A DNA stretch of 64,000 nucleotides, from contig NW_026570221.1 of assembly GCF_019649055.1 (NCBI RefSeq), positions 806,001 through 870,000 on the forward strand. The letters are read 5' to 3'. Of this stretch, positions 36,975 to 60,370 are shown piece after piece. How positions within the stretch are numbered: the stretch's first letter is position 1; every line of letters starts with the position of its first letter. The translations under genes and the position numbers were made by a program. The notes beneath the pieces were generated by a model. The model was not told the DNA's origin, searched no databases, and saw only the letters and a program-made list of their open reading frames with translations. The stretch is from Paramacrobiotus metropolitanus. Its lineage: Eukaryota; Tardigrada; Eutardigrada; Parachela; Macrobiotidae.

Positions 36975-37332
36975 CTAAAGCTAGATCCAGAATAGATCCA
37001 GGAACAGAGACAGAAACAGAATCTATCCTGCGGAGTGAGCTATGCAGTATGGGTAGCGAACTACGCGGAAACACGAAACGTCGCACTGCTAATAGCTGAC
37101 TTTTAATATCGAAAGTCTGGAGAACAGAAAATCAATCAACTGATCGGCGCAGCTCGATCGTAAAACGTAGAGCCAATTCAACAGCGTGCAGCGCTGTGCA
37201 GCACGTGCCATGCCGCGCCCACTATCAGAACGCAAGCCAATCACAAGAGACACAACACAGACACGTAGTCCAAAGGCGTAGCGCCACAGGCGTAGCGCCA
37301 CTGACGTGAACGCTAGTGATCCCGGTCTCACA
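36975..37332 (-). repeat. 3' LTR of the giant retroelement
   Basis: 358 bp, no difference seen against 61279-61636. In sense it starts TGTGAGACC and ends CTAGCTTTAG, so the 3' terminus is AG rather than the usual CA. It contains two copies of GGCGTAGCGCCAC in tandem (37274-37302), an inverted CCAAT box (ATTGG in sense) and a TATTAAAAG at 37100-37108 that may serve as TATA element. No AATAAA was noticed. Confidence 0.95.
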
Positions 37333-38776
37333 TGCCTCTGGGGGGATGCCGAGCTCCTGTGAGGCTGGACACACTCCCGGATCCACGAGAAGACGACGGT
37401 CGCCGGTGTCTGTGTGCGCTCAAAAACATCAAATTCTCTTATTCCATTTATCACATAATTCCAAATGCACAATGTGAAATAAAGAGATCTGTATTAAAAT
37501 ACTATTCCATATCAATTCTAATACAAAAACAGATCAACAGTTATAAGATCAACAAAAGTATTAATCAAATGTAGACTAGGATCCTCCGTTTCTGACTCGT
37601 AAAGGTCACAGGTCCTGTCCACCGTTTTCCGCACTTTGGCCCATTCCGCTCGGTTGAGCAATTCTGCGCATCCGTAGTGCGACTTACATCACAATCCGCT
37701 TTAAGAATCAGGTGCGTATCAAGTACGACTTAGAAATACTGCTTCATCTTTGGAATATGGTGCGTATCAATTGTACGACTTAAAATGAGATCCGTTAAAG
37801 GTCATGGAGGGACGTCGTGTAGACAAGCGTAATTCGCTTCCTCCCTGATAAAGGTCATCCTTTATTGAGATGATCCGTTGAGATGTGCGACTCGTTATGG
37901 GTTAATGGTCCCAAAAGGTCATGCGACTGGAATTCCGGTACGGTGACTCTCTTGGGCGGTAATGATCCCAAGGGTCATCCAACTTTTCTTCAAACTTCCA
38001 TTAAAGGTCATGGAGGAACTTAGCCGATTTTTGCCGACTTTCAAGCATTTCTTCGCTTGCCCCCCTGGTAAAACTTTTAAGTTGACCTTTCCGTCGCACA
38101 TCCCACTTCAATATGCCTCGAGCGGCCAGAGTGCCGGCAGAGTTTACCGTAACATCTCTGATGGGGCCGGCTAACTACCGCATTAAATTTACCCCATGAC
38201 GCTTCCACATTAAATCTTTTACTCTTGTTCGCCGCTTGTGGCCCAGCTTCCGTACGAGAGATCCGGCTTGATTACCGTTATTTCTCTCGTTAAGTTTTGA
38301 CACTGAATCGCTTAAGGAGAGTGGCCGGCATAGTACACCGTAGCGTCTCTGATGGGGCCGGCTAATAGACCGAATCAAATTTAACCCCATTAATATTTCC
38401 ACCTGTTGTCTTTCTCTTTTTCGCCGCTTATGGCCCATCTTCGTCTTCAAGAGATCCGGCTTGATTACCGTAGTTTCTCTTGCTAATTTATAACACTGAG
38501 TCGCTTAAGGAGGAGAGCCGGCTGACTGCCGTAGCAACTCCTTTGGGGCCGGCGTAATAGACCGGATCAATTTAAACCCCAATCGCTGCTCCACATGATT
38601 TCTTTATCCTTTGCGATTCTGTGCTATAAACGCTGAAAACAACAATTACACAAATGCAGTTAATGTTAATATGTCACGTCGCCTTTATACAACACCATTT
38701 CTCATTTCTCATTCTTGTGACGTACCGACGATTGCCGTAGACGCCCCTTTTAATAGTGTGATCCTAACGATCAGCA
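37333..38776 (-). other. 3' untranslated region of the retroelement
   Basis: About 1.44 kb between ORF5 and the 3' LTR. At 37600-38010 it holds five AAAGGTCA octamers on the plus strand (37601, 37798, 37850, about 37914, about 38003), orientation opposite to most coding copies. At 38128-38640 there is a tandem repeat. Next to the LTR only a weak purine run (AGAGG) stands where a polypurine tract is expected. Confidence 0.7.
38128..38640 (-). repeat. About 190-bp tandem repeat in the 3' untranslated region
   Basis: Units start at 38128, 38318 and 38514 (the third partial). Each has a GCCGG...GGGGCCGGC block, a CGCCGCTT.TGGCCCA block, GATCCGGCTTGATTACCG and ends with CGCTTAAGG. Two blocks recur in the 5' leader: a 22-bp match between 38517-38538 and 60829-60850, and a 16-bp match between 38230-38245 and 60920-60935. 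Confidence 0.8.
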
Positions 38777-41515
38777 CTATTCCATTTCATTTGAGTCGCC
38801 CTCCTCGCCGTCTCTCGGCTGGCGCTTCTTAGAACTTTCTGGTTGATTGCGGTCAGACGTTCGGTCAACTGGTTCCGTGGAATCAACTGCTATGACCTTT
38901 TCCGGGTCAACTTCTCGCTGACCGCGACCTTTCCCTTGGCGACTGCGTTTAACCGCCTCTACCCGGTGGCGTGCGTCATTTTCTTCCAGTCGCAGTCTTC
39001 GGTTATTAGGGTCGTCCGCCAGTCGCCGTTGCACATCAGCGAGGTTATCGCGGAGTCGCTGGTTTCTTAGGCCGCGTCGTCCTATCTGGTTAGGGGCGCG
39101 TTCTGGGCGTCGGTCGCCTTTATTCACCAGAAATTCGTTGATGTAGACGTCTACTCCGTCCACTGGTTCAATATAATCGCTTCCCATAGTATCTTTGATC
39201 TTATTAATCCGCTCTTCGACCTGGGAGGCATGGCGCTGTGTAAGGTTTCCCTTTTCCCTTCGTGTCCTACACTTTTTCAACGCCTTCCGAGCCGTGTGGG
39301 CTATTCCAACATGTTCCATAGGCTCTCCCAACTTAACCACGTGAGGTCGGAAAAGTGGCGGGATGTCATCCTTCATTGTGTTAGAAACCAACTGGTTCTG
39401 TGTTTTATAGTGTGCCAATCTCGCAGCGAAGACCTTCTGCCCCATCCTTTTTGCGGCATGGTCTGTGGGATCCACCTGTAATCCGATCGATGCTCTAGCT
39501 GCAAGTAACTTGAAGGCCGGATTCACATGTCGTAGAACGAATTGAGCCACATATTCTTGTCGTTCATCATAGTCTGTGTAATAAAATTGTGTCATCCCGA
39601 CTGGGTCAGTCGTGTCCAATGGCACGTCCAATAGGCTCAAATCCAGCAAACTGTGTAATCCATTTCGTCGGATGGGGAGATAACAATCTCGCGCAGAGTC
39701 ACGAGGAATGTATAGTCGACGAAAAGTTCCTTCTTCCACTCCCCTCTTAATCTCTCTCGCGTACCCAGAATCGAGTAGGAATTGGCTCAACTGTCTCAGA
39801 ATTGTGCCAATTTTGTTGGCTTCAACCGAATCCGGCTCAAGTCCAAAGTATCGGCAAATTTCGACCGTTTGCTCATCAATATCGGTCGTCTTGTATTCCA
39901 TATCGATACTTTCAGGACGTCGGTTGTCAAATCTGGAGTTCTGTCGCTGATCAGCCCGGCGATGATTATCCGGTTCTCGTTGACCTTCTGGTTCACGTTG
40001 TTCTCCTGACTCAGGCTGCAACGGTTCGTTACTCGCCGGTTGTTCCGGTCGGAGGTCACTATCCAGAATTACATTTCGTCGATGGGTCACGTTCTCTTGA
40101 GACGTTTCCGCAATCGAGCTGGTCCCTTCCATCGCATCGTCTTCTTGTACGACGCTCACAATTGGTTCCACGACGTGAACCATTGACTCTACCCGCTGAT
40201 ACTTTGGAGGTGAATCTTCCCGTTCAGTGCTTGATGACCTTTTGCTTGCGCCCGAGTCAAAGGTCGCATAAAATGCGGCTCTCTGTTGCCATCTTTTATC
40301 TTGTGGGTCAGGCGTTCGATTTCGCGTATGTTCACGTCTTTTATCCCATGACCTTTCGGGTGTTGACATCCTGACGTTACGATTCCGGAATGCGACTCCC
40401 ATCGGCACCTGATGCCCTTGCTTTTCAGGCTCTGTACGGAATGTCTCCGCACGCCGTTTTTCTTCACGTCCTCTCGTCGCCGCCAAAATCTTTGCCGTAT
40501 CGATTTTCCTTTGAATACTCATTTCTGTAACTTCGTCTCCATGGCGCACCCATCCTCTTCCGCCACGGTAATCTCTGTCATGAGAGCGTTCGCGTGACCT
40601 TTCGCTACGATAATCCCGTGTCCTTTCGCGGGAGTGTTCACGTGACCTTTCGCTTCGTCTTTCTGAAGTCCGCTCGTGTTCACGTGAATGTCCGCGTGAC
40701 CTTTCTCTATGCGGCGGTGAACGGGGTCGTGTAAACACGTCATCTCGTCTAAATCCTCTGAGCGCCTGTAGAACATTGCTCTCGTTCTGGCGGGATTTGC
40801 GCAGGTCTTCCATACGCTCTTCAATTGCCTTCTTTATGTACGGTGCTGGGGCGAAACCCTTCTGCAGTCTCAATTTCTCCCGCAACAGCGCATCAAATAG
40901 TTCCTGTTGCATAGCGGCCGGATCACTCGTCAGAGTGTCAATCTGAATGATAAGAGACTGACGTGTAAGTTGCGCTTCTTCTTCGTTGAGGCTGGCTGTC
41001 GGTACAGTTGAACTCGACGGATTTGGCAGCGCCTCTCTTGCGGCCTGTTCGCTCGCCTTTTGATTCGCCGCATTGATCTTTGCCCGGAGTTCGTCCTCCA
41101 GCTGTTGCCGTCGCATTTTCTCCTGGTCCTCCTCGAACTTCTTACGGTATGCATCCGTTTGCGGGCATTTCAATGGCTCCAAAGTCTCATCCCAGCCACT
41201 TTCATGATTCTGGATCGCTTCCCGGTAACGATCCTCAAGTAGCATCCGCTCTTCAACTGGAATGCAGCCATAGTTCCTCGCGCTGATGAGGTTTCGAAAA
41301 ACGTCCATGTTCCCCCGTTTAGCTTCCATAAGTCCCACGAGTGAAACGATGTGTGGGTCACCCAACTTGTGAATACAAGTGTAGCAAGGGAATTTCTTGT
41401 CAACCTTTTTGTTGTTCCTTAGACAGTCCGGACACTTTGGATTATAGCCCGTAAACTGATCGATGTCTGCCGCCGTTCCCGTACGTTTAGGAGTGGCTTG
41501 ACCTTTCTGTGCCAT
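38777..41515 (-). CDS. Retroelement ORF5, 912 aa, unknown function with zinc motif and RS region
   Basis: ATG start at 41515, stop at 38777. Near the N-terminus, CPDC-X12-CYTC (codons at 41434-41423 and 41386-41375) forms a CX2C-X12-CX2C pattern typical of a zinc-binding fold. A charged helical part follows, then an Arg/Ser-rich stretch (RERSRGHSREHERTSERRSE) that partly arises from in-frame AAAGGTCA copies. A globular-looking region follows (TVEICRYFGLEPDSVEANK, FVLRHVNPAFKLLAARASI) and a basic C-terminus (RNQRLRDNLADVQRRL). No signal peptide or membrane helix, so not an envelope. A good 3' splice site (TTTTATAATTACAG, exon start 41529) lies 14 nt before the ATG, suggesting expression from a spliced RNA. 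I do not recognise a homologue. Confidence 0.8.
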   Translation of the reverse strand: MAQKGQATPKRTGTAADIDQFTGYNPKCPDCLRNNKKVDKKFPCYTCIHKLGDPHIVSLVGLMEAKRGNMDVFRNLISARNYGCIPVEERMLLEDRYREAIQNHESGWDETLEPLKCPQTDAYRKKFEEDQEKMRRQQLEDELRAKINAANQKASEQAAREALPNPSSSTVPTASLNEEEAQLTRQSLIIQIDTLTSDPAAMQQELFDALLREKLRLQKGFAPAPYIKKAIEERMEDLRKSRQNESNVLQALRGFRRDDVFTRPRSPPHRERSRGHSREHERTSERRSERSREHSRERTRDYRSERSRERSHDRDYRGGRGWVRHGDEVTEMSIQRKIDTAKILAATRGREEKRRAETFRTEPEKQGHQVPMGVAFRNRNVRMSTPERSWDKRREHTRNRTPDPQDKRWQQRAAFYATFDSGASKRSSSTEREDSPPKYQRVESMVHVVEPIVSVVQEDDAMEGTSSIAETSQENVTHRRNVILDSDLRPEQPASNEPLQPESGEQREPEGQREPDNHRRADQRQNSRFDNRRPESIDMEYKTTDIDEQTVEICRYFGLEPDSVEANKIGTILRQLSQFLLDSGYAREIKRGVEEGTFRRLYIPRDSARDCYLPIRRNGLHSLLDLSLLDVPLDTTDPVGMTQFYYTDYDERQEYVAQFVLRHVNPAFKLLAARASIGLQVDPTDHAAKRMGQKVFAARLAHYKTQNQLVSNTMKDDIPPLFRPHVVKLGEPMEHVGIAHTARKALKKCRTRREKGNLTQRHASQVEERINKIKDTMGSDYIEPVDGVDVYINEFLVNKGDRRPERAPNQIGRRGLRNQRLRDNLADVQRRLADDPNNRRLRLEENDARHRVEAVKRSRQGKGRGQREVDPEKVIAVDSTEPVDRTSDRNQPESSKKRQPRDGEEGDSNEME

Positions 41516-41855
41516 TTTTCCGCTTCAATCTGTAATTATAAAACAATCCGTCATATTAACTTCTCCACGTTAATCCTTTCCATTTCCTATCCATATCAAG
41601 GCTTTTCTATCATTTTTACGCCTATTCCGTTACTGAGCTGAGACTTTCCTAGCTCCTGCTGCCTTTTCTATCACTGTAACGTGGTAACCTTTCTCACGTT
41701 ATCAGCACTTTCTGACTACTGTGACCTTTTCTATTAGTCCTAGTACTGCTTTCAGTTGACCTTTCGTAACATTTTTCGCTTTCGTTTTAAACTGTTTTAT
41801 GCTTTTTCTGTAATATGCAGGGTTCATTACTCGCTGCATATTACACTATATTAGT
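41516..41855 (-). other. Spacer between ORF4 and ORF5
   Basis: 340 bp, pyrimidine-rich on the plus strand. It contains two TGACCTTT copies (41719-41770 area) and the splice acceptor that precedes ORF5. Confidence 0.6.
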
Positions 41856-44012
41856 TCACTCGGATTCTTTCATCGATGGTTTATACGGCTTGAAATCGAT
41901 TCGACCATCTGGCTTAATATGAAGCACTTCGTCCGCGATCAAGGCTTCAACGGCATTCTTAATCCACTCTTTATCGCTTTCAATATTCAAATCTCCCAAT
42001 TCGTAATTGACGGCCATGAAGTTTGAAAGGTCATTCCATGACGCTCCATTGGTACCGCCAATGGCGTCCAAAGCTACATCTGTGATGGCTATCTTCCAGG
42101 CCTCCAGTTCCATTTTCAGTCTGGGCGTTCGTTCCGTGCCCTGTTTCGGAAGGTAGTAGACGACTTTGTTGTCCTTGTTGTATTTACATCCCAACTTTCC
42201 TTCCTTATATGCTCGTTTCAGAGCTCGTTCAGTCATATTAAGTGACGACCTTCCGTTCGTATTTATCGCCACTTGTCTTTTCAGGTCTGTCCCAAGCATT
42301 TCTTTCTCCCGAATAATCTGGAGTGCGTTCTGGACTTCGTTCCATGTACGATTATTCACGTCCAATGCCGGCCCTAACATGTAATCTGTAGCCTCCTTTG
42401 CCGGTGTACCGCTACTTTTCTGGGAGGATGTCGAGTCCGTTGGGTCAGCCGTCGCTGTCTCGTCGATCCTCAGCTTTGCCAGTGATCCTGATGATGACCC
42501 CGCCGATTTTGGTTCGGCTGTCTTCTTCTCCTCTTGTGGCGTAGTCTCTTGACCTTTTAAATCGCCGACCGACTTCGATCGTTCCTTCTCAAAGACGTCC
42601 TTTAATGGTATGAACAGTGATTTGTGAAACACCTGGCGCGCCGAATCCGCTTCAGCTTCTGCCGCTGCTTTATCCATCGGGAGCATGACCTTTTCTTTCT
42701 CCCGTTTATCTGACGTCTCATGACCTCTCGGTTGATCTTCTGCGGTAGTTCCAGATGTTTCTTGACCTTTCGACTGTTCACCTTTTTCTGTCGCAGGTCT
42801 AGAAGGAGCCGTTGTTGTAGTATCGTCGTCACTTCCCGATTCCGAGTCCATTGGGCCTTTTGTCTTCGATGAAACTGTGACCTTTTCCATATCCTGACTG
42901 TCGGACATATTACAGTGGATCTGTCTTTCCGGTGGTATTAGACCAACTCTCGTGTATCGGATCGGGTGTCCTTTATGTGCGTTTGTCGTGGCAAGGACGT
43001 TCTGTTTAATCAACTTTGGCAATACGCGTTCGGTTGCCGTGTCGATCTCCTTTATCATTCCATTTCCGTCGTTCCAAACTGCGTTGATGTATTGGCTAAT
43101 CCGGTGACTCGTTGATCCTAATGGGCTTGTCATTCCCGCGATTGCCCTTTCCACTCGCATTGGGACCGCTTCATTCGGAGTTGTCAGCGCCTTATCCGAA
43201 CTGGCTGGTCTGAACAACTTGGCCTCATACGAGAAACTCGGGTGCTTCTGGATAAGTTTTCCTGCGTTCCGTGCGAATTCCAATACGACGTCAAACTTCT
43301 GTTTAGTAAAGCTACGACGCTGTCTCTTCAAATACGTCTTCAGGCCTGATTTAAATTTGGATGTCACCGATGCTGTTCTTATTCGTGTGAAATTCTTCTC
43401 CGCTCCGTTATACGCTTTGATTATTTCATCGACCGTGTTCAAATTATCATCATCTGGACCGTCAAATTCTTCATCCTCTGTAAAGTCCAATTCGCTCTCT
43501 CCATCTGGTTCAGCGTAATTGATCATTGCCATTGCATCAACTTTCATGGCCTTTCCCTTCGTCTTAACGGGCTCGCTCTTTGCTTTTTGCCCTTTATCCA
43601 AGGCCTCCGCTAAGCTTCTTGGCTCAGTAGTCCTTGATCGTGTCGTTTTCGAATCTGTATGTGACCTTGCACTGACCGTCGAAGTGCTTGGAAGGCTCAC
43701 TTCCGATGCCTCCGATTCACGCGACGTCTCCCGTTTCGCTTTTTCGCGAGTCTGTTTATCCTTGCGCTCCTTTGGCGTGGATGCGGAGATGACAATGGGG
43801 ACAGCTTGTTTCACCGCTATGACCTTTCCTTTGAGTTTTGATGGCTCTGCTGTAGCCGATTGAATAACTTTCTTTGACTTCGTAGGTGTCGATGACCTTT
43901 CTTCAACTTCGCCAACTGACTCGTCCAATATCTCGACATCATGCGACGCTGGTTCATCTCTTTTCTTCTTCCCGGTGCTTATGCTATCGCTTTCGTCACC
44001 GCTCTTCTTTTC
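41856..44012 (-). CDS. Retroelement ORF4b, about 718 codons, winged-helix-like domains
   Basis: The frame opens at 44012 after a stop and closes at 41856. There is no ATG in its first 150 or so codons, so it is probably a continuation of ORF4a in another frame, or starts at a non-ATG codon such as the TTG at 43928. The N-terminal third is charged and disordered (TREKAKRETSRESEASEVS). The middle holds FTKQKFDVVLEFARNAGKL. Three segments look like winged helices: HRISQYINAVWNDGNGMI to HPIRYTRVG, RTWNEVQNALQIIREKEM to NKVVYYLP, and ITDVALDAIGGTNGASWND to DGRIDFKP. The last resembles a linker-histone globular domain. A nucleic-acid-binding role is inference. Confidence 0.7.
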   Translation of the reverse strand, partial: EKKSGDESDSISTGKKKRDEPASHDVEILDESVGEVEERSSTPTKSKKVIQSATAEPSKLKGKVIAVKQAVPIVISASTPKERKDKQTREKAKRETSRESEASEVSLPSTSTVSARSHTDSKTTRSRTTEPRSLAEALDKGQKAKSEPVKTKGKAMKVDAMAMINYAEPDGESELDFTEDEEFDGPDDDNLNTVDEIIKAYNGAEKNFTRIRTASVTSKFKSGLKTYLKRQRRSFTKQKFDVVLEFARNAGKLIQKHPSFSYEAKLFRPASSDKALTTPNEAVPMRVERAIAGMTSPLGSTSHRISQYINAVWNDGNGMIKEIDTATERVLPKLIKQNVLATTNAHKGHPIRYTRVGLIPPERQIHCNMSDSQDMEKVTVSSKTKGPMDSESGSDDDTTTTAPSRPATEKGEQSKGQETSGTTAEDQPRGHETSDKREKEKVMLPMDKAAAEAEADSARQVFHKSLFIPLKDVFEKERSKSVGDLKGQETTPQEEKKTAEPKSAGSSSGSLAKLRIDETATADPTDSTSSQKSSGTPAKEATDYMLGPALDVNNRTWNEVQNALQIIREKEMLGTDLKRQVAINTNGRSSLNMTERALKRAYKEGKLGCKYNKDNKVVYYLPKQGTERTPRLKMELEAWKIAITDVALDAIGGTNGASWNDLSNFMAVNYELGDLNIESDKEWIKNAVEALIADEVLHIKPDGRIDFKPYKPSMKESE

Positions 44013-44485
44013 TTATCTTCTTCCTCCTGTCGTTTCTTCTTATCTTCTTCCTCCCGTCGTTTCTTGAGGAAATCGCCTTTCTTAACCTTGTCGCGGTTCA
44101 TGGCCTCTTCCAATCTGGGCGCTTTTCTCGGTTTGACTTTTGAGGGCTTGACCTTTAAGGGCTTTTTATGCTTGTCGGCCGTTTCTTCGTCTGAGCCTTC
44201 TTCCTCGGGTGGGTCTTCGTCTTCCGACTCTGGTTCGTCGTCACCAGGTGGATTACAATAGCCACAGTTTGGTTCATCACACTGAAGGTGCTCATGACTT
44301 CCCTGGGCAATCTCTAACACTCTTTGTAGAGAACGTCTTGCCCCTCCGGTTTCAGTTAGATTTGCCGACGTGCCCGGCGCCTCTTCCGTCTCTCCGGCTC
44401 CGCCTTCTTGTGCCGGGGATGAATTTCCAAGTGTCTTGTCTCTTTCGGAGATCCCTGTGAGGCGACCTCCCACAAAGGGTTCTTC
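43979..44485 (-). CDS. Retroelement ORF4a, acidic/basic linker frame overlapping ORF3
   Basis: Open from 44485 (after TAA) to a stop at 43979, about 168 codons, without an ATG in its first two thirds. It overlaps the end of ORF3 by about 130 nt in the -1 frame. It reads through an acidic stretch (DDEPESEDEDPPEEEGSDEE), then Lys-rich repeats (EEEDKKKRQEEEDKKRRA). CX6CX2C-type cysteines (CDEPNCGYC) are present. A candidate slippery heptamer CCCTTTG lies at the start of the overlap (44479-44473), in the ORF3 frame. The next junction, to ORF4b, has no canonical slippery site. Confidence 0.55.
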   Translation of the reverse strand, partial: EEPFVGGRLTGISERDKTLGNSSPAQEGGAGETEEAPGTSANLTETGGARRSLQRVLEIAQGSHEHLQCDEPNCGYCNPPGDDEPESEDEDPPEEEGSDEETADKHKKPLKVKPSKVKPRKAPRLEEAMNRDKVKKGDFLKKRREEEDKKKRQEEEDKKRRAVTKAIA

Positions 44486-46716: not shown

Positions 46717-46842
46717 TAACTGTGCTTACCTTCTATAAAATGAAACAATTAAGGTTAACTTTTTTGCACAGTGTTGACCTTTCTTTTTCCTTTTCAACTC
46801 CTATTTTTAAATTATTGTGACCCCTTATTTATGTCTATGTGG

Positions 46843-52800: not shown

Positions 52801-55800
52801 TAATGTCCTTTGACTCGCTTCAGGTTTAACCTGTTCCTGTACTGTGGTATCTTCCTCACATTCGATTGGAGTCACGCTTTTATCCTCAGAGGATATTTCA
52901 ATGACCTCTGGTTCTTTTTCTGTTCGGTGACCTTTTTCTGTTCGGTGACCTGCTTTCAATTGTTCGAGTGCCTTGTCGCGGATTTCGCCTGTAAACATCT
53001 GTTCCTCTTCAACTATTCGTTTCAAAACTCGTAACCTTTCACTCTTTTTATCCTTCCCCACTTTAGCCGTCTTTATTTCCAGTGCCTCTGGTACTGGGAT
53101 AGGCTTTGCCCACTCCATGTCTGGCACAAGAGATTGTTTTGCTGCAACTGCCGCTTCTTTCTGTGTGGCAATTATCTCTTCAATCGTTGGTGACCTTTCG
53201 GTAGCAGGTCGTGGTTCGAAAAAGGGTTCCTTTTGAGATTCACGTTCTGTTACTTCCTCTTTGGTTTTATCTGAAAGCCTTTCATTTTGGGTAGCAGATC
53301 GTGGTTCGAAAAGGTTCGAATTACGCTCTCGTTCCAAGTTCTCAGTTGCTGATGACCTTTCGTCTTCCTTTCCCAGTGTCTCTGGTACTGGGATAACTTT
53401 TCCGACTTTTCCATTTTCATTTTTCGTTTCCAGTGCCTCTGGTACTGGGATAATTTCTTCCTGCTGCACTTTTGTCATTCCCGGTGCCTCTGGTACTGGG
53501 ATGACCTTTTCTCTTCCCTTTGGTGCCAGCAAGGTCCGATTTAATGTCTTTTCGATCTCCTGCTGAATCATTTGCAACTGCTCAAATGGTGACAATTCTT
53601 TTCGCGTCATCTTTTTCTTTTCGTTTCCCGGTGCCTCTGGTACTGGGATTAGCGTTTTATTAACCATTTGAGCATTTCCCGTCTGTTTTACAAGTTCGGT
53701 GACCTTTCCGACTTGAACTTTGGCGACTGGTTTGGGGTCATCCTCTTTTTCTTCTTCACCTTCATTGTCCATCAGTACGAATTTCTTTTCCAAGAAGTCA
53801 AATCCCAATAGCACCTGTACGTCGTCACACTTCGGTCGGACGTAGAAGGAATGTTCGCTTGTCTTCTTTCGTAAGGTCACTGGCGCTACACAGTAGTGCG
53901 TCACCAGGAATCCTGACGTTCCGCTAATTCCGTTTATTTTCACCAGTCTATCTGGTGGCAATGGGAGCATGTGGAGTCCATTCTTTTCGCAGAACGGTTT
54001 GCTGATCAGCGACGTCTCAGCGCCGGTGTCCAACATTGCGTTGACCTTTATGTCTCCCACTTTCACTTCGTGAGTGTATGCTTCAATTCTTTTAGGCAAT
54101 TTTCCGTTTTGAATCTTCAATGTGTGAATCTTACATTTCACAGGGATGAGCGATACTGGTCCTGGATCCATATCGGGAAGCACTTGTCCTTTTGCTGGAG
54201 TGCTATGACCTTTCAATATCTCGCTCAACTTATCAATCCTATGTGGAACGTTAGTCCGAACATCGTAATATTTTCGCGGCTTTTCTTTATTTATTTGCTT
54301 CTCTGTACCACTGGTAACCTTTTCCACATTCTGCACTTGCTCATTTGCTTTTGTGCTATCCATGTGACCTTTAGTCACTTCACTTATCGTCTGATGGATC
54401 AATTCCTCTTTACGATTTCCATTTCGTTTATCTCTCAGCTTCTCAATGACTTCACTTGTTATTTGGTCAGCTCGCTTCAATTCGTCTTCTTCGCTATCTT
54501 TCATCTCATCTGGTGACCTTTCATATGTAACCATGTCATATCCTTTTTCGGTCATCCATTCGATCACCTTCGCGGAGATTTCATTGTTCGTTTTTGTCTG
54601 ATCAATTTGTGAAGACATTCCGTCTGTTCGGGCTGGTGACTTGTCATTGGCATCCTTTTTCAGCGCCTCCGATAAGTCCCGTGACCTTTCAACTGCGTTA
54701 CTCTGTTTCGTTTGCGCCATTTCATTTGACCGTCCTTTTTGTTCATTTTGCGCTAAGTCCTGTGACCTTTCGTTGCGCTTCATGACAAATCCGCCACCTG
54801 TCAGCTTTTGTATGGGGACTTTTTCTCCATAATTCGGCGGTTTATCCTGTGGTGGAGCATTACGTGAATGATTCCAGTCAGCGAATGTCTTCTTATATTC
54901 TTCTGGATTGAATACTGGGACTGGGTTCGATGACCCTTGCGCTGGTTTCCCGGTAACCAACTCTTCCAGTCGCTTTCTTTCACATTGCGTTCGCAACTGT
55001 TGCATGTCCCAGTAGTCCTCTTGTGACATTCTCGCTTTCTGCTTTGCTTTCGGCGTTACGGGTATCCACATCCCGTGATTGCCATTCGGTCTGTAGGCCA
55101 CTTTTTGCCACTTTTCCTTCTGTTGCAGCGTTATTGCATCTACAAGTGAGTCATCGGAGTTCTGTCGTGCCAATTCGCCATTCTTTTGCTGCGCTGTTCG
55201 CAGTGTCAAGTCTGTTTCTTGACCTTTTAACACGACGCTGTCGCCGTGACCTTTGGCGTTCACACCTGCTCCGTGACCTTTCGCTTGAACTTTTCCAACA
55301 GAAGGTGACCTTTCATCTTTACTAATGACGGTGATATTCTGCTTAATCCATTCTTGCCTTATTCGCTTCTCTTCTTCGTCTTCTGAACCATTCCAAAACT
55401 TTGGCTTTGGTTCCCCGTAACAATCGCACCTTGGCTCATTCGCCTTGTCGTTTTCATTTATCTGTTTCCGGAACCATTCGTGGTGCATTTCCACTTCTTC
55501 TGCGGTATCAGTTTGCGGTTTCTTTTGGTTTAACAGCGCTTGTCGAATCTTGGCATTACGTTGTGCACGTCGTTGCGCTAACACTTCTTCGCTGCAGTAC
55601 GGTGACCTTTCATTTTGCTGCACTTTTTGCAGTGTCGCGCTACCGTCACGACAATTCCCACTCGCAGTACCATTCTGCGGTGACCTTTGGTCCCGTTGCG
55701 CGCTTCCACTCGCAGTACCATTCTGCGGTGACCTTTGATTCTGCGACGGTGTCCTTATAACCGTTCCATTTCCTTTTTGCGATGACGGCATCCATATAGC

Positions 55801-56025
55801 CGTTTCTCTTTGCTGTGGCGGCGTCCATCTAGCCGTTTCTTGTGGTTGCGGCATCCATATAGCCGGTCCACTTTGCTTTTTCGCTGACGGCATCCATATA
55901 GCCGTTGCAGTGGTCACGTTCACTGCAGTACCATTCTGCAGTGGTGACCTTTCCCTTTTATCCGGTGGTTTAGGGTCGGGTCGATCAGTAGGCTCACCGG
56001 TGCCTACTGATCTTGCCCGTTTCCC
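46843..56025 (-). CDS. pol: Pol polyprotein (PR-RT-RNase H-integrase), expressed by -1 frameshift
   Basis: Open through the gag overlap to a stop at 46843, about 3,050 codons; there is no ATG at its beginning. Order in sense: about 600 residues of Gln/Ser-rich leader with AIWMP repeats; aspartic protease (LDTGAETSLISKPF; DTG at 54030-54022); about 1,000 residues of charged linker with acidic runs; reverse transcriptase (FCVNYIMLNKL, GYIDDVIFAG; YIDD at 50193-50182); RNase H (ECDASKEGIGAVLS; Asp at 49740-49738); integrase with an HHCC finger (CQGC at 48555-48544) and a DD35E triad (48459, 48276 and 48168). After the integrase, a C-terminal module (FKVGDFVLIRLPKD) and about 400 residues of tail with FFEP repeats follow. 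All catalytic residues are present. The length is two to three times that of usual Ty3/gypsy pols, mainly from the leader, linker and tail. Confidence 0.95.
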   Translation of the reverse strand, partial: GKRARSVGTGEPTDRPDPKPPDKRERSPLQNGTAVNVTTATAIWMPSAKKQSGPAIWMPQPQETARWTPPQQRETAIWMPSSQKGNGTVIRTPSQNQRSPQNGTASGSAQRDQRSPQNGTASGNCRDGSATLQKVQQNERSPYCSEEVLAQRRAQRNAKIRQALLNQKKPQTDTAEEVEMHHEWFRKQINENDKANEPRCDCYGEPKPKFWNGSEDEEEKRIRQEWIKQNITVISKDERSPSVGKVQAKGHGAGVNAKGHGDSVVLKGQETDLTLRTAQQKNGELARQNSDDSLVDAITLQQKEKWQKVAYRPNGNHGMWIPVTPKAKQKARMSQEDYWDMQQLRTQCERKRLEELVTGKPAQGSSNPVPVFNPEEYKKTFADWNHSRNAPPQDKPPNYGEKVPIQKLTGGGFVMKRNERSQDLAQNEQKGRSNEMAQTKQSNAVERSRDLSEALKKDANDKSPARTDGMSSQIDQTKTNNEISAKVIEWMTEKGYDMVTYERSPDEMKDSEEDELKRADQITSEVIEKLRDKRNGNRKEELIHQTISEVTKGHMDSTKANEQVQNVEKVTSGTEKQINKEKPRKYYDVRTNVPHRIDKLSEILKGHSTPAKGQVLPDMDPGPVSLIPVKCKIHTLKIQNGKLPKRIEAYTHEVKVGDIKVNAMLDTGAETSLISKPFCEKNGLHMLPLPPDRLVKINGISGTSGFLVTHYCVAPVTLRKKTSEHSFYVRPKCDDVQVLLGFDFLEKKFVLMDNEGEEEKEDDPKPVAKVQVGKVTELVKQTGNAQMVNKTLIPVPEAPGNEKKKMTRKELSPFEQLQMIQQEIEKTLNRTLLAPKGREKVIPVPEAPGMTKVQQEEIIPVPEALETKNENGKVGKVIPVPETLGKEDERSSATENLERERNSNLFEPRSATQNERLSDKTKEEVTERESQKEPFFEPRPATERSPTIEEIIATQKEAAVAAKQSLVPDMEWAKPIPVPEALEIKTAKVGKDKKSERLRVLKRIVEEEQMFTGEIRDKALEQLKAGHRTEKGHRTEKEPEVIEISSEDKSVTPIECEEDTTVQEQVKPEASQRTLTPEERAGSCHHGYFEDPCRVQPQWECAECFENASQDDPSEWPRCNAALADLKGHAQKKAKSIMRTNEMWKPHIERYHWNRYRTWLSCVESFIIGRGRWLNHWLQRVEKGIQDPLDPVATEKRFEREIEEMTEEGEMWEEARVDLFWDFRVNHMYKGEGRTIIFPAGLGTPVYESLEVYYNALKEGNEKAFEKYWKKFEEEIPKFDVKEMRELQVTRKRRLPGLMQKKKVTFAPDPDGVDYPERGGDTWCMYETIPNDEWVTEELMANCIFVGPKRPKGYETVQQDEADKGTVKEAEKEEPAQEIAEGQSNETEESSKSAFDIAQMLTDRGEMWKKFKEEVERISNEQQNPVTEAKNGERSLDDGEECPPVEWTEKPLTSREEINELEKSKSDEERSNSDQSERSPTRIRVARSHPRVAARNGRKAKEGDKPLLKNSKAKKLSDSRESESDLSSEDEGVDERPLEKTDKGQATAQEYESSNSDSEWTSSSDNSTTSEDSGVSDLSEQEDLMDLDEDDEVDELKEKDIKVRRLKVEKARMSKDVIKVYSDQRIKLKPSNCTRVKVKMGKYAPAQNKLMFTPVPQVETEVQPLAGVTDHRGKYFEIVIANHSSKYRIVKKNQLLGYVEPYEHMENVKVNAGTVKNVLEDPEVDETTKAELKKIIENLKLGPDLTQEQKNDVYNAFWEFWKVLPTSRKPYGDVKGVTHVIDTGDAKPVKCNPARTSWTGREFITKHIEEMLAQDVIEPSDAEWSFPVVLAVKKNGDGTMGTRFCVNYIMLNKLTRKNNYPLPNPDELLDACAGNKYYGKMDLQSGFWQIPMDPASINKTTFVTQDGMYRFKRMPFGVCNGPATFQLCMDKVLSKAKRKGCVFGYIDDVIFAGKTWEIFMQNLRNVLMSLVEAGFTIKPTKCEFGMRQMGFLGHILSEDGIRMDPEKVTAVSEFKRPQTARQLRSFLGLANYYRKFIMGYAQKTCHLYELLRQDKHVKKDWTTVHEEEFNSLKKLLCEGPVLAKFDPAKPTVIECDASKEGIGAVLSQDGHPIAYASRVLHGAEKNYGVTEWECLAVVFAVRKFKPYIDYAEFTVRTDHQALTNLLRSETNKVGMNPRLTRWAMALQGHQFKIEYKPGKYCDNADALSRAPIEGPTCHEEEFDEIPNFEDYKKEFDTKEPAIEVGQLFLQMVEQREKRLKVTSATANESAENEAKVNRVRSWLPAVSDLKVTGLDAESQMQNGKVTGLDDRAENREDLWETDKVAQALNECPIKLLRFPKQAKKRYKPLPRCKVIKDWNELSTATVRIVNLQGDEEEVDDSNLQLRNKQLKDPHLAMIIDELEHLPDAETRSKFEVHYQLWNGILYRVKDKNGKLERSYVVPLSMRRAIIHALHDEKAAGHLGFEKTLSAIRLRYYWDRMSTDVKNYILACQGCQFRKTPRKCPPGKLQEIKVGHPFFRVYADLKGPLLPTKKRGYKYIAVFIDQLTKYVIAVPMKTATAKEFAKVFVKHVILVHGAPHILHTDRGRHFTAEVLAKVTNVFKIKHTFGTAYHPEGQGQVERQMQTIADGLAQYLKAGNERKFNKYLPYVISAMNRVVHATTGYSAYYMLHGREMTMPEDVVTKTNIPDDYGTPDEWVETMKKNLTFAEEVARCNIKDAYEKNAEIYNKKKSEPNFKVGDFVLIRLPKDTKQGKKENQSDFKSKYDKVWKILSFPRPNEAEVIEQNPKKEADLKVVSIDRLKPWHPPLPDEKNSQRTLNEKGTKEAEHASKNGTNQFFEPPLLPEMENVSGKEDEPERSPKNDSVTQQKPFFEPPLLHEVNEETKSHQDGQNPNKKRGRKRKEDKDFETAVTIKLNAEAGNLAERSLEKDTETSTKVPERSSKKDLQQSFFEPHTATEDKDDLSKQRTDAEMSERDPNFFEPRTVTGTENDLIKKREEEIEAVKSKAEQLGRDIAKAINERKVKQKKKKPTPTDLLTQKGEPEDAAEKELLDRITKGRENK
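47080..47530 (-). repeat. FFEP repeats in the pol tail
   Basis: Four copies of a motif starting FFEP lie at about 47080, 47172, 47408 and 47508, and two more before the protease at about 53212 and 53298. In sense the best copies read TTCGAACCACCTCTGCTACC, which resembles the 3' end of initiator tRNA-Met and is partly complementary to the element's own primer-binding site. Confidence 0.6.
53080..53660 (-). repeat. IPVPEA repeats before the protease
   Basis: Five copies of IPVPEA(P/L) or IPVPETL, at about 53088, 53380, 53440, 53490 and 53635, share the sense words ATCCCAGTACCAGAGGC. They are spaced by variable charged linkers. Confidence 0.8.
55962..56025 (-). promoter_or_regulatory. Programmed -1 ribosomal frameshift signal, gag-pol
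   Basis: Slippery heptamer G GGA AAC in gag frame at 56025-56019, six-nucleotide spacer, then an 11-bp perfect stem (56012-56002 with 55993-55983). The 8-nt loop pairs through CCGGTG (56000-55995) with CACCGG at 55967-55962, giving an H-type pseudoknot of 11 and 6 bp. The gag stop (TAG, 56006-56004) lies within stem 1. A -1 shift moves gag (Gln-Gly-Asn) directly into the open pol frame. Confidence 0.9.
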
Positions 56026-59000
56026 TGAACCGGCGCCCCTCCTTGTTGCGCGCCCTGCACATTTCCCTGCTGTTGATCATTCACCGGGCCGCCTCCGTTT
56101 GGCTGGCCACCACCCTGTTGGTAGTTTCCGCCTCCATTTCCACCGCCTCTGTAATTTCCGCGGCCATAACCTCTGTTCCTTCCTCTGAAGCCGCCGCGAC
56201 CGAAGCCACCGCCGCGATAGCCGCCGCCTTGGCCGCCCCCATTTCCATTTCCATAGTTTCCGTTACCTTGCTGATTCTGGAAGTTCGCTTTCGCCTGGTA
56301 CCATTGCGTAATCAGGTCATATCCATTTGCGACCGCTTGGCGCCAACCACCGAGCCCGCGCAGTCGTTGCCACTCGTTGAAGGCAAACAGGTTTGGGTTC
56401 TGTTCCGGTGGTGTGTTGGCGAATTTGCATCCCTGGGTCTGGTGGTTGCCATACATACAGTATTGGCACATCTGAACGTTGTTCGCCACCCATCCGTCAA
56501 TCATTTGGAACTTGAATTCTGTCCGTGACCCTTGATTCTGCTGGTAGTTCTGGTTTCCTCTATTTGGCTGAAAGTTGCCTTGACCTTGACCTTGATTCTG
56601 AAAGTTTCCTTGGCCTCCATTCCAGTTTCCATTCCCATATCCATTTCCGCCAAAGTTACCGTTACCCCCTCCTTGTTGTGGTAACCCGACATTCATGGGG
56701 ACCATATTCTGTGGTGCAGGTGGGGCCACATTCTGTGGAGCCACATTCTGGGCTACTGGTCTCACTTGAGCTGCTGCCTGTATCGCCGCCACCATCGCGT
56801 ATGTTATCGGTTGCCCCGTCTGACTGTCGATAAAGGTCACCTTTTCCGTGACCTCTCTGACCGGAGTCTCTGCGCGGTATTCAACCGGCTGCTGGGCTGG
56901 CGCAGCTGCCATTCTTTGTTGCGGCACGTTTTCAACTTGACCTTGGCGGATGGTCACGTATTCCTGATTACGTTGACCTTTCGGCGCCTTATACTTTTCC
57001 TCTCCCGTTGCCCAATGTCGAAAGAAATCTTTCACGTCCGTCGGCGTCTTGCACTTCTGTATGCGCAATGCTTTGTAGAGTTCGTTATCCCCTCTACATC
57101 CTTCAATTAGGAAACCCACTGCTTGTTTCTCTGTGATGATCCGTTTTGCTTTGAATCGCATCATCGCCTGGTAATACTGATCAAGCGATTCCTTTCCGAG
57201 TTCGAATTTCCTTGCATAGGCCTCACGTAAGCCTAAGACTTCTTCGTCTCTATCGCCATATTCATCTTTGAATTTCTCCATCCATTCAGTTATTGAATAT
57301 TCAATTCTGTCTTCTGCTGCGATGTCTTTTTCGCCTTCGAACCAAGTTTTAGCAGGACCTTTCACCGCACTAGCAATCTCAATCATAATTTGGTCGTCCG
57401 TCAGCTGGTACGTCCTTTGAGTTTCTTTTACCAACCGTGTCCATCCACTCACAGTGTCGCGGCTGCCGTCAAAGGTCATGAGGGGTGTTTTCCGAGCCAT
57501 CGAATTGAGTGCCTTTGTTAATTGTACCGCTGTGTTGGCTGCTCTCTGGTCCTCGTCTTCTTCGCTACTCTCATCATCATCGTGAGTTCGTTGCGCCTTC
57601 CCATAACGAGACTTCCTTGGACGTTCCTGCCGGCTGGGGGGTCTGTCTCGTCGTCCTTCGTCGATAAACACATTCGTTTCGATGTGCGGGGGAAATTGTG
57701 AAGGTTCACCTCGACTCATATGCGGGTAACTTTCCGAAGGTGGCTCTTTGTCGTCTTTGACCTTTTCGCCATCTCTTTCATTTTTAACACTCCCCTTACC
57801 GGTGCCGGTTCGTAGCGGCATCTCAAAGTGGAAGCTTTTGCCCGTGCCCGTTTCATGCGCCTTGCTGTAACTGGGCGGAGGGGACTCCACTGTTGCCGTT
57901 TTAACTCCGTATTGTAGGAGTTGTTCATCTTTGTGCTTGTTAGACGTCTGGAGCGCCTTGTTCTCATCTTCCAATCGTTTAGTTCTCAGTTGAAGTTCTT
58001 CTCTTTCCCTCTTTAGATCAGAATTTTCCAGGTTGACCTTTCGTAAGTGTTCCTGCAGTTTAAAAGACTCCTGCTGGGTGACCTTTTCTTTTTCCCGTTC
58101 CATTTTTTTGATGTGCTCGACCAGCTCACTCGTTTCTTTTTCGAGTTGCTGATACTGCCCAGCGGCTGATCTCAGCTGATCCTTGATTGCGATCAACTCA
58201 TCATCTTTTGCCAATGCTGTGGTGGTCATCTCGACGAGGTCAGTGTTCAACCTTGCAATTTCCTGACTCTTTTGAGCGACCTGTTGTTGCCACTCTTTGT
58301 CCTCCAACTCCAATGTTGTGACCATCGTGTCCAGTCGCCGTGCTTCCTTCTGCCATTTGAGTCCTTCCTTAGTGACCTTTTCAATGTCTTCTATGACCTT
58401 TTCATTCTCCTGGTTGACCTTTTTGATTTCTTCTTTCAGGCGTTCTCCTTCAGTAGCTGTGATGTCTCTTGCCTCTCGCATCGCTTTGATTGCATCATTG
58501 CGCAACTTCTCAGCTTCGTCCGCCCGTTCCTGATGACCTTTTGATTCTAGTTGTAGAGTACTGACTGCTTCCTCCCGTAGCTTCAGGTCATTCCTTAGTT
58601 TGAACGTCTCCGTCGCCAATGTTGTCAACCGTTGTGTGACCTCTGCGAATTTGGTCGCGTACTCGTCCCGTTTAGTTTCAGCTTCAGTGACCTTTTGACG
58701 CAACTGGTCACATTCGTCCTTCAATTCGGCTAAGTGCCGTGACCTTTCCGCCGACTCTTCCGACATACTCTCGTTCAACTCGCTAACCGCGAGATGACCT
58801 TCCATTTCTCTGTCATCTACCATTTTGAGGTACTCTTCAGCGAGTTCTTTTTGACGCTCGTATTTAATCTTCCATTCATCCGCTGCGCTTTCCAAGTCGG
58901 CCTGTTGTTGCTCCAGTTCATAGATACGAGCATCCAGAGTTCCTATCCGATTTTGATATTCCTGTTTCCTTTTCGTCACCAGGCCTTCCTTGGCTTCGAG

Positions 59001-59750
59001 TTCCTCTTCCAACTCCTTTACGCGTCTCTTCAGAGTTGACGTGGGACTGTTCGGTGATGGCGATCTAACATTGATGACCTTTCCCATTTGTGTCCGTTCA
59101 ATAAGGTGCTCGGGTATGTCCTTGAATGGTGTCATCCCTTCAACACGGTCAGCTTCCTTCATCGCAGTCTGGAAGGACATATTCATCGTCGCTTCATCAT
59201 CCGTGAAGTATGATTCATTCGATTCATCTGAGACCATTGGAGTTGCCCAAAGGTCATCGCCTGCGGTTTTATCGATCAGTGAAAGGTCATCCAGTCCCAG
59301 TTCAACGAGTTCTTCTTCGGTGACCTTTGTGTTTCTCCCGTCCACTTGAGCCAGGTTCACATTTTTATCCTGCTCATTCGTTCCACTAATGGTAGCATCA
59401 AGCTGTGATGCTCCAACTGGTTCCGCTCCTCTTACTGTGGGTTTATCCTCCCCGGTGACCTTTGTCTGGTTCATCGGATTGCCTCCCGCCGTAGACGCGG
59501 GAGTTTCCTTTCCGTCACCGCTGGAGCTCTCTTCGTTCTGTATAGCTCCAAGCGCCACTTGGTATGTGTTATCACTGCCTTTGCTGTCCTTTCTTGCAAA
59601 GGTCACAGCCGCTCGGGTCTGTCTGTCATGTCCGACTGGACGCGCGAGCGACTTGTATTCCTTCTTATAAGGATCAACTGTGCCTTGTTGTGATCCCCGG
59701 GAGCTCCTGCTTCCCTGACTGCTAGTGGATGTCGGTTCCTCTTTGTCCAT
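56004..59750 (-). CDS. gag: Gag polyprotein, 1,248 aa
   Basis: The ATG at 59750 is the first Met in frame; stop TAG at 56004. Residues about 1-240 are acidic and Ser/Thr-rich. About 240-640 is a long coiled coil (RVKELEEELEAKEGLVTKR, ELEQQQADLESAADEWKIK). About 750-930 matches a Ty3/gypsy capsid (MTFDGSRDTVSGWTRLVK, AKTWFEGEKD, LDQYYQAMMRFKAKRI). A Gly/Asn/Gln-rich nucleocapsid follows, with a CCHC knuckle C-X2-C-X4-H-X4-C (CQYCMYGNHQTQGC, 56468-56427) and a GGYRGGGFGRGGFRGR-type RGG region. Capsid assembly and RNA binding are the known roles of these parts. Usual Ty3/gypsy Gags are 300-500 residues, so the coiled-coil N-half is an addition. Confidence 0.92.
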   Translation of the reverse strand: MDKEEPTSTSSQGSRSSRGSQQGTVDPYKKEYKSLARPVGHDRQTRAAVTFARKDSKGSDNTYQVALGAIQNEESSSGDGKETPASTAGGNPMNQTKVTGEDKPTVRGAEPVGASQLDATISGTNEQDKNVNLAQVDGRNTKVTEEELVELGLDDLSLIDKTAGDDLWATPMVSDESNESYFTDDEATMNMSFQTAMKEADRVEGMTPFKDIPEHLIERTQMGKVINVRSPSPNSPTSTLKRRVKELEEELEAKEGLVTKRKQEYQNRIGTLDARIYELEQQQADLESAADEWKIKYERQKELAEEYLKMVDDREMEGHLAVSELNESMSEESAERSRHLAELKDECDQLRQKVTEAETKRDEYATKFAEVTQRLTTLATETFKLRNDLKLREEAVSTLQLESKGHQERADEAEKLRNDAIKAMREARDITATEGERLKEEIKKVNQENEKVIEDIEKVTKEGLKWQKEARRLDTMVTTLELEDKEWQQQVAQKSQEIARLNTDLVEMTTTALAKDDELIAIKDQLRSAAGQYQQLEKETSELVEHIKKMEREKEKVTQQESFKLQEHLRKVNLENSDLKREREELQLRTKRLEDENKALQTSNKHKDEQLLQYGVKTATVESPPPSYSKAHETGTGKSFHFEMPLRTGTGKGSVKNERDGEKVKDDKEPPSESYPHMSRGEPSQFPPHIETNVFIDEGRRDRPPSRQERPRKSRYGKAQRTHDDDESSEEDEDQRAANTAVQLTKALNSMARKTPLMTFDGSRDTVSGWTRLVKETQRTYQLTDDQIMIEIASAVKGPAKTWFEGEKDIAAEDRIEYSITEWMEKFKDEYGDRDEEVLGLREAYARKFELGKESLDQYYQAMMRFKAKRIITEKQAVGFLIEGCRGDNELYKALRIQKCKTPTDVKDFFRHWATGEEKYKAPKGQRNQEYVTIRQGQVENVPQQRMAAAPAQQPVEYRAETPVREVTEKVTFIDSQTGQPITYAMVAAIQAAAQVRPVAQNVAPQNVAPPAPQNMVPMNVGLPQQGGGNGNFGGNGYGNGNWNGGQGNFQNQGQGQGNFQPNRGNQNYQQNQGSRTEFKFQMIDGWVANNVQMCQYCMYGNHQTQGCKFANTPPEQNPNLFAFNEWQRLRGLGGWRQAVANGYDLITQWYQAKANFQNQQGNGNYGNGNGGGQGGGYRGGGFGRGGFRGRNRGYGRGNYRGGGNGGGNYQQGGGQPNGGGPVNDQQQGNVQGAQQGGAPVQGNGQDQ

Positions 59751-59825
59751 GTTGATCGGATAACTTGGACGCTCCTGCCAATTGTTCTCACACACACGTT
59801 ATTGTATGGTTTATTCAGTTGTCCT

Positions 59826-60370
59826 AAAGGTCACTTCGTACTTCGAAATTTTTCTAAGTCCTTTGTAAAGGTCACTTTTCGATTGAAAAAATTTCAACTA
59901 AGTCCCTTATAAAGGTCACTTTTTCGGTAAAAAGTTCGAGAGATTTGCCCTAAAAGGTCACTTTCGGACAAAACTTCGAGACGGCTTCTACGGTTCCAAA
60001 CACGTTAGTGAATGAAATCTTACAGCTGCTGATATCGCTGTACCACTATTCAGTTCAATTTCGCTTCGATAAAGGTCACCGTTCGTCAGTTTCAGATCAT
60101 AAAGGTCACTTAAATTGGTCAATTTGGTCAATTCCAACTTTTTGGTAAAGGTCACTTTTCAAAGTCAAAAGTCAACTTCTGGTCTCAAGGGTCACTTTCT
60201 GACTCAACTCAACTCGAAAGATCACCTTCCAGTTCAATTTCTGTTAAAAGGTCACTTTCCCGCTCAATTCAAGTTAAAGGTTACTTTTAAGCTCAATTCG
60301 ATCAAAGGTCACTTTTCCTTTGTCTCAACTCAAAAGGTCACTTCTCAACTCAATTCAAGTCTAAAGGTCA
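59826..60370 (-). repeat. AAAGGTCAC octamer array in the leader
   Basis: Eleven exact AAAGGTCA on the plus strand start at 59826, 59867, 59911, 59953, 60071, 60101, 60147, 60247, 60304, 60333 and 60363, and at least three one-base variants (near 60186, 60217, 60276) lie between. Most extend to AAAGGTCACTTT. In sense they read TGACCTTT, opposite to most copies in the ORFs. Confidence 0.9.

What the first reader, a model, noticed from the sequence alone, without database searches (positions are those of the whole stretch)
37600..60370. AAAGGTCA octamer dispersed through the whole retroelement in all codon frames
Seen: by eye I find some 60 TGACCTTT and about 30 AAAGGTCA on the plus strand between 37.6 and 60.4 kb. 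About 0.75 is expected for one octamer on both strands in 24.7 kb at equal base use, and only about three were noticed in the other 39 kb. In the ORFs it is read in all three frames, giving recurrent ERS, KGH and KVT tripeptides in every large protein, so selection or spread acts on the nucleic acid, not the peptide. Established: AAAGGTCA is the NBRE, the extended half-site of NR4A/NGFI-B-type nuclear receptors, and close to FTZ-F1/ERR sites. Inference: the element may be tagged for a host nuclear receptor, for its own protein, or for packaging, comparable in logic to DNA-uptake sequences.
Basis: partly seen in the sequence, partly recalled or inferred. Interest (0 to 1): 0.92.

Follow-up and report, generated by a model that had tools for sequence, protein, structure and literature searches.

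The report
Giant retroelement tagged with one octamer
A giant jumping gene in a water bear carries about 94 copies of one exact eight-letter DNA word, mostly inside its protein-coding genes, and evolution preserves that word even where the proteins do not need it, as if the element must be read along its whole length by a DNA-binding protein.

Summary
The window is from the tardigrade Paramacrobiotus metropolitanus. A 24.7-kb Ty3/Gypsy element with identical LTRs (36974-61636, minus strand) holds 94 AAAGGTCA, against 6 in the other 39 kb. In its five main ORFs 72 are seen against 6.2 under synonymous-codon shuffling, in all frames and both orientations. A second copy, 90% identical, keeps 79 of 87 aligned sites (49% of other octamers survive). 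Four-fold synonymous positions inside the word match in 75 of 76 cases, against 1869 of 2349 outside. A third copy (10 kb, 82%) keeps 21 of 27. Selection therefore acts on the nucleic acid. A sister family with an 83% identical integrase region almost lacks the word and has a weaker word of its own. AAAGGTCA is also among the most over-represented octamers in 247 kb of host DNA (32 against 7.2), with similar flank preferences, which favours a host nuclear-receptor-type (NBRE) reader. The most likely role is recruiting that factor along the whole body to keep it active or unsilenced. Reader and role are inferred; no binding was tested. Closest analogue: Arabidopsis VANDAL/VANC, whose motifs lie in non-coding repeats.

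The parts
36974..37332 (-). 3' LTR (359 bp), identical to the 5' LTR; no AAAGGTCA
   Evidence: 364-bp identical match, including 5 bases judged chance; end set with the C387 copy and motif counted
61278..61636 (-). 5' LTR (359 bp); no AAAGGTCA
36970..36973 (.). probable target-site duplication TGCC, left copy (right copy 61637-61640)
   Evidence: flanks printed
61266..61277 (-). probable primer-binding site TGGTAGCAGAGC directly after the 5' LTR (tRNA not identified)
59826..60370 (-). 5' UTR array: 11 octamers, all sense TGACCTTT, often within AAAAGTGACCTTT, partly from local duplication
   Evidence: (D8)
56004..59795 (-). Gag-like ORF, 1263 aa, with a CX2CX4HX4C zinc knuckle near the C end; 18 octamers
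46843..55923 (-). Pol ORF, 3026 aa, PR-RT-RNase H-integrase; 36 octamers, sparser in the catalytic domains (1.61/kb) than elsewhere (4.57/kb)
44356..46716 (-). accessory ORF o3, 786 aa, no Pfam match; 4 octamers
41856..43928 (-). accessory ORF o4, 690 aa; C-terminal linker-histone-like stretch (PF00538 E 7e-4, below its cut-off); 7 octamers
38777..41515 (-). accessory ORF o5, 912 aa, N-terminal CX2C-X12-CX2C; 7 octamers
37601..38090 (-). 3' UTR cluster: 5 sense TGACCTTT and 1 sense AAAGGTCA

Best explanation
The octamer (extended form GAAAGGTCAC, ninth base not G) is a double-stranded DNA protein-binding site that the element keeps at about one per 250 bp over its whole body between the LTRs, coding or not. 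SHOWN: enrichment, exactness, both orientations, purifying selection at synonymous sites, turnover at roughly constant number, near-absence from the sister family, and over-representation of the same word in host DNA. The 5' UTR array would be the oldest part and may act as enhancer or insulator. Rough odds: nucleic-acid-level selection 0.97; double-stranded DNA recognition 0.85; host nuclear-receptor-type reader 0.55; chromatin or anti-silencing role, given such a reader, 0.6.
For: Codon-aware enrichment. Both orientations enriched and conserved: ORF sense A-form 50 of 55, ORF T-form 10 of 11, non-ORF T-form 14 of 16, non-ORF A-form 5 of 5 intact in the C387 copy (7 further sites unaligned). 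C387 copy: 79 of 87 aligned sites intact against 48.7% of 23522 other octamers (one of the 8 losses, 37914, is an alignment-gap artefact), 51.6% of 5569 offset octamers and 59% of 59 one-mismatch octamers; the eight motif columns are 95-99% identical, flanking columns 87.6% on average (range 77-95%). Third positions of synonymous codons inside the word: four-fold 75/76 against 1869/2349, two- or three-fold 98/100 against 2461/3064. Third copy (10 kb of C167): 21 of 27 intact against 29.8% of 9526; 6 lost, 7 gained. Host: 32 against 7.2 expected in 247,298 bases without tblastn similarity to element ORFs, rank 2 of 32277 octamers under Markov orders 2, 3 and 4, in 17 of 24 pieces; enrichment by ninth base C 7.6x, T 5.0x, A 3.9x, G 2.1x, the element's order C>T>A>G; preceding base G highest and C lowest in both.
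Against: No binding, chromatin or expression data. Under stricter background models the host excess shrinks: order 5, 32 against 16.8, rank 23 of 32277; order 6, 32 against 26.1, rank 2127 (such models absorb most of an 8-mer). Family B in the same host has 1 octamer in 10 kb (L084) and 7 in about 11 kb (C17), so this factor is not generally needed by the clade. The 5' UTR copies are all in one orientation although base skew would favour the other; local duplication may explain it, but a single-strand function cannot be excluded. The LTRs carry no site. The host sample is about 0.15% of the genome. I could not test whether an NR4A orthologue exists or is active in the germ line. Other nuclear receptors also read AGGTCA (recalled).
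Confidence: 0.5

Rival explanations
1. VANC-like self-recognition: an element-encoded protein (o4, o5 or o3) binds the word along the element's own copies and counters silencing or helps the DNA in another way; each family has its own protein-word pair.
For: The sister family has homologous but far diverged accessory proteins (o3 35%, o4 37%, o5 42% aa) beside an 83% identical integrase region, and almost lacks AAAGGTCA. It has its own excess of SAGATSR: in C167 ORFs 55 against synonymous null 23.0 (max 31 of 200), while the window family has 23 against 29.3. Six component 6-mers of that word are not enriched in the host. o4 has a weak linker-histone-like stretch.
Against: AAAGGTCA itself is over-represented in host DNA without element similarity, with similar flank preferences. 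No domain above its Pfam cut-off was found in o3-o5 and no useful PDB match. The B word is degenerate, only 2.4-fold enriched, and its final form was trimmed after C167 had been seen; the earlier-fixed GAGATSG gives 11 against 4.5 (max 11 of 200). A coordinated base-5 shift between families is not exceptional (rank 16 of 201).
Confidence: 0.25
2. An RNA-level signal: the word or its complement in the genomic RNA is bound by Gag or a host RNA-binding protein, or AAAGGUCA in ORFs pairs with UGACCUUU in the UTRs to compact or circularise the RNA.
For: Sense RNA holds 67 AAAGGUCA and 27 UGACCUUU; orientation is split by region, with 16 of 17 in the two UTRs UGACCUUU, and in the 5' UTR this goes against base skew.
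Against: A single-strand binder does not explain enrichment and conservation of both forms inside ORFs (T-form 11 against 0.41; 10 of 11 intact). Neither version explains the same word in host DNA or the missing G at position 9.
Confidence: 0.12
3. No present function: repeats spread by duplication, a mutational bias or peptide preference.
For: Some sites lie in local repeats (D6, D8, D10).
Against: Codon-aware nulls, random spacing, gains largely by point changes, and selection at synonymous sites.
Confidence: 0.03

Closest known systems
VANDAL21 / VANC21 anti-silencing system, Arabidopsis (PMC5735166; passages seen)
   Same: A mobile element packed with one short nine-base motif (YAGTATTAY) that marks its own copies; related VANC proteins use other motifs; fast motif turnover; an element-encoded protein binds it and removes DNA methylation along the element.
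   Different: Motifs there lie in non-coding regions, often as tandem repeats; here most lie in ORFs in all frames, spaced at random. VANDALs are DNA transposons (recalled); this is a Ty3/Gypsy retroelement. Here the word is also frequent in host DNA, and no reader is known.
gypsy 5' UTR insulator with repeated Su(Hw) sites, Drosophila (recalled)
   Same: A dense array of short sites in the 5' UTR of a Ty3/Gypsy element.
   Different: Different motif, and confined to the 5' UTR, whereas here the ORFs and 3' UTR are covered too. That a host protein reads the array is inferred here.
NBRE (AAAGGTCA), monomer site of NR4A/NGFI-B receptors (search listing; details recalled)
   Same: Identical octamer.
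   Different: NBREs regulate genes from promoters and enhancers (recalled); a retroelement tiled with about 94 of them was not found in the listings.
DNA uptake sequences of bacteria (recalled)
   Same: A short exact word dispersed through coding DNA.
   Different: Bacterial, genome-wide, serves transformation; here the high density is confined to one element family.
Burro giant Gypsy-like elements of planarians and Ogre of plants (PMC6431247; passages seen)
   Same: Very large Gypsy-type elements with extra ORFs.
   Different: No dispersed word is mentioned in the passages seen; this element's length comes from long Gag/Pol and extra ORFs beside short LTRs.

Membership tests
Ty3/Gypsy LTR retrotransposon | Two LTRs, PBS, target-site duplication | tested here: met
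   TSD TGCC (4 bp); PBS judged by position and TGG start only
Ty3/Gypsy LTR retrotransposon | PR-RT-RNase H-integrase order in Pol | tested here: met
   protease 619-712, RT 1800-1962, RNase H 2027-2153, integrase 2407-2579, each above cut-off for at least one model
VANDAL/VANC-type anti-silencing | Short motif dense in own copies and sparse elsewhere | tested here: met
   about 3.9 per kb against 0.13 per kb
VANDAL/VANC-type anti-silencing | Motifs in non-coding tandem repeats | tested here: not met
   72 of 94 sites lie in the five main ORFs; random spacing; only the 5' UTR array partly fits
VANDAL/VANC-type anti-silencing | Element-encoded protein binds the motif and relieves silencing | not testable with these tools
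NBRE / NR4A target | Sequence AAAGGTCA with an exact extension | tested here: met
   CAAGGTCA and TAAGGTCA have 5 and 4 copies in ORFs
NBRE / NR4A target | Occupied by an NR4A receptor of the host | not testable with these tools
   42 C4 zinc-finger proteins are reported for this species (PMC12941274 passage); no orthologue was examined
Su(Hw)-type 5' UTR insulator | Dense protein-site array in the 5' UTR | tested here: met
   11 sites in 545 bp; motif differs from Su(Hw)'s (recalled)
Su(Hw)-type 5' UTR insulator | Enhancer-blocking activity | not testable with these tools
   needs a reporter assay

The most novel reading that the evidence does not exclude
A retroelement that rewrites its own coding sequence in all frames to tile its body with a host transcription-factor site, so that its proviral DNA is recognised along its whole length as active host chromatin. 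Sister families carry different words, so words and readers switch in an arms race inside one animal genome.
Probability: 0.4. Interest if true: 0.95.

Novelty: new variant of a known kind. Interest (0 to 1): 0.86.

Why it matters
Binding-site tags in mobile elements are known from LTRs, UTRs and plant non-coding repeats. Here about 90 exact copies are maintained, mostly within protein genes and against codon and peptide expectation, in an animal retroelement. It offers a clean system (long open ORFs, several copies, two sister families with different words) for asking how an element defends or marks its own DNA, and it suggests a simple assay for such tags elsewhere: look for octamers conserved at synonymous sites between copies. 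It also points to a frequent regulatory-like word in a tardigrade genome.

Tried and rejected
Chance, codon usage, peptide selection: rejected. Periodicity: no helical phase (resultant 0.05 at 10.5 bp); best period 14.7 (0.193) and period 3 (0.189) are weak and uncorrected. Coordinated word shift between families: of 34 gapless comparisons of window sites with family B loci (some sites counted in two loci), 7 are intact and 11 have A at position 5, but AGATC to AGGTC ranks only 16 of 201 and the reverse 15 of 173, so not claimed. E-box-like CAGMTGA in family B: strong on C17, not replicated on C167 (10 against 5.3, max 14 of 200), dropped. Family B word: in the EM run on C17 the SAGATSR-like motif was second by a hair (82.2 against 82.8 for another motif). 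Orientation as a pure skew effect: fits ORFs but not the 5' UTR. PDB matches for o3, o4, o5: none of note. In one search the row for AAAGGTCAH is zero because my script lacked the code H; ignored. In one search my peptide signature missed KVK/KVN/KVM, so retention counts (for example 17 of 22 for P0002) are slightly low. Peptide signature over relatives (a chosen 23 of 143 proteins): clear in 11 of 14 P. metropolitanus proteins (weak in P0133, P0136, P0137), absent in 9 of 9 from other organisms or unnamed sources; of four family B pieces three show none, but the L022 Pol piece does (8 against 2.3, 1 of 300 shuffles).

Full report
SETTING. Pol of the element matches annotated proteins of the tardigrade Paramacrobiotus metropolitanus at 97% and 94% identity; the genome holding the window has 169.8 Mb in 533 contigs. 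The element lies on the minus strand between two identical LTRs. The LTR end was fixed with the second copy, whose LTR ends in CTCACA on the plus strand, giving 359-bp LTRs at 36974-37332 and 61278-61636 and a TGCC target-site duplication. Pol has protease, RT, RNase H and integrase. Three extra ORFs follow Pol. The relatives found for o4 and o5 were all from this species (13 of 13 for o4; 9 of 9 for o5 besides the query itself; in each only the 8000 candidates sharing most words were scored). o3 was not searched that way.

THE WORD. 94 of the window's 100 AAAGGTCA lie in the element. In five ORFs 72 are found against 6.16 (synonymous shuffle, max 13 of 200) and 1.05 (codon-order shuffle, max 6 of 200). 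Density per kb: 5' UTR 7.4, Gag 4.75, Pol 3.96, o3 1.7, o4 3.4, o5 2.6, 3' UTR 4.2, LTRs 0. It is sparser in the catalytic domains of Pol (3 sites in 1866 bp, 1.61 against 4.57 per kb; for the wider RT-integrase block 6 of 36, binomial P 0.057), as expected if it accumulates where the protein tolerates it. One-mismatch octamers are few (0-6 copies each).

SELECTION. A second copy with both LTRs on contig C387 has 95 copies in about 24.1 kb (32+40+23). At 90.0% nucleotide identity, 79 of 87 aligned window sites are intact, against 48.7% of 23522 other octamers; 14 sites were listed only in C387, most of them one change away. One listed loss and one listed gain (37914) are the same intact site split by an alignment gap, so 80 of 87 and 13 are nearer the truth. 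Identity is 95-99% in the eight motif columns and 87.6% on average in the flanks (single columns 77-95%). At third codon positions with the first two bases conserved, four-fold sites match 75/76 inside and 1869/2349 outside the word (Fisher p 1.3e-6), two- or three-fold 98/100 and 2461/3064 (p 2.1e-7). A third copy (10 kb of C167, 82% identity) keeps 21 of 27 against 29.8% of 9526 (p 3.9e-7), loses 6, gains 7; its synonymous sites agree (17/19 against 539/863, p 0.015; 28/32 against 695/1024, p 0.019). Number is held while places turn over.

STRANDS. Both orientations are enriched over the synonymous null (61 against 5.49; 11 against 0.41) and both are conserved. This fits recognition of double-stranded DNA. 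In ORFs the preference for sense AAAGGTCA follows the A-rich coding strand; in the 5' UTR all 11 are sense TGACCTTT although skew would favour the opposite. Their shared AAAAGTGACCTTT context suggests local duplication.

SISTER FAMILY. A related family was met by luck in a host sample (C17, L018 and L022) and again on C167 (L084); the two share 82-90% of bases where they overlap. Its integrase region is 83% identical to the window's in protein, but Gag is 54-66%, N-terminal Pol 40-60%, o3 35%, o4 37%, o5 42%. AAAGGTCA: 1 in 10 kb of L084 and 7 in about 11.3 kb of C17, of which 3 lie in the 5' UTR in the same orientation as here. The C17 copy lacks RT and most accessory sequence. Of 34 gapless comparisons of window sites with family B, 7 are intact, against 8-14% of other octamers. 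Family B carries a degenerate word SAGATSR: 6.5-9.5 per kb against 1.2-2.1 in family A and 0.8 in host. A close form was read from C17 by EM. Tested on C167 ORFs it gives 55 against 23.0 (max 31 of 200); family A 23 against 29.3. This test is not fully blind: the word was trimmed to SAGATSR after the commonest words of L084 had been seen, and L084 shares about 2 kb with L022. GAGATSG, fixed before L084 was fetched, gives 11 against 4.5 (max 11 of 200). A third, more distant Gypsy piece beside the C387 copy has 0 AAAGGTCA in 5.9 kb.

HOST. In 20 10-kb samples (500001-510000 of contigs C1-C20) the word occurs 28 times against 5.8 expected; five of these fell in the C17 element. In 247,298 bases (24 pieces) with no tblastn similarity to element ORFs it occurs 32 times against 7.2, rank 2 of 32277 octamers under Markov orders 2, 3 and 4, behind TACGAGTA. 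With order 5 it is 32 against 16.8, rank 23, and with order 6 it is 32 against 26.1, rank 2127; in a slightly different set order 5 gave rank 10 of 12393. Ninth-base enrichment runs C 7.6x, T 5.0x, A 3.9x, G 2.1x and the preceding base G highest, C lowest (32 sites, small counts), as in the element. This points to one factor reading both.

MECHANISM. Demonstrated: a nucleotide-level tag, kept by selection, in one element family. Inferred: a host factor of nuclear-receptor type reads it on double-stranded DNA; 42 C4 zinc-finger proteins are reported for this species (PMC12941274, passages). Because sites cover the whole 24-kb body and not the LTRs, a role in keeping the body open or unsilenced is more likely than a classical LTR enhancer.

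LITERATURE. Listings only: AAAGGTCA with retrotransposon gave 2 papers judged unrelated by title and abstract start; tardigrade with AAAGGTCA none; two broader searches on motifs in retroelements showed no precedent in the titles and abstract starts listed (10 of 77 and 10 of 13 listed). Passages of PMC5735166, PMC12941274 and PMC6431247 were seen; no paper was read whole. Subscription journals are mostly missing from the library.

LIMITS. One species; three copies compared, one in full; about 0.15% of the genome as host background; no whole-genome scan because the search tool did not complete; no protein structures.

Noticed in passing
L001 (C41:21430-24448), positions 559-1575: Six AAAGGTCAC in 3 kb with no similarity to the element, two pairs as direct repeats 11 bp apart (a DR5-like arrangement of AGGTCA).
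   Followed up: partly
host samples L002-L021 and window flanks: TACGAGTA is the most over-represented octamer of the host sample (34 against about 6) and is absent from the element.
   Followed up: no
window 53076-53675: A 51-bp unit with five copies (61-76% identity to the first) in Pol (peptide IPVPEA); related words are also enriched in the C17 copy of family B.
   Followed up: no
window 38133-38522: Direct repeats about 191-193 bp apart in the 3' UTR (D5, D9).
   Followed up: no
window 7753-8673 and 35771-36634; 6819-7442 and 35023-35721: Two pairs of ORFs that look paralogous by eye lie upstream of the element; one pair looks F-box-like (EVLKEIFHSLDTVDRLRCRRTCQLWE).
   Followed up: no
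C17:503308-515341 (L018, L022): A family B copy with 99.7% identical LTRs that has lost RT and most accessory sequence, probably a recent non-autonomous derivative.
   Followed up: partly
L066:5610-6429 and L024: Further Gypsy-like integrase pieces (43-47% and 60% identical) lie on C387 and at the start of C52.
   Followed up: no
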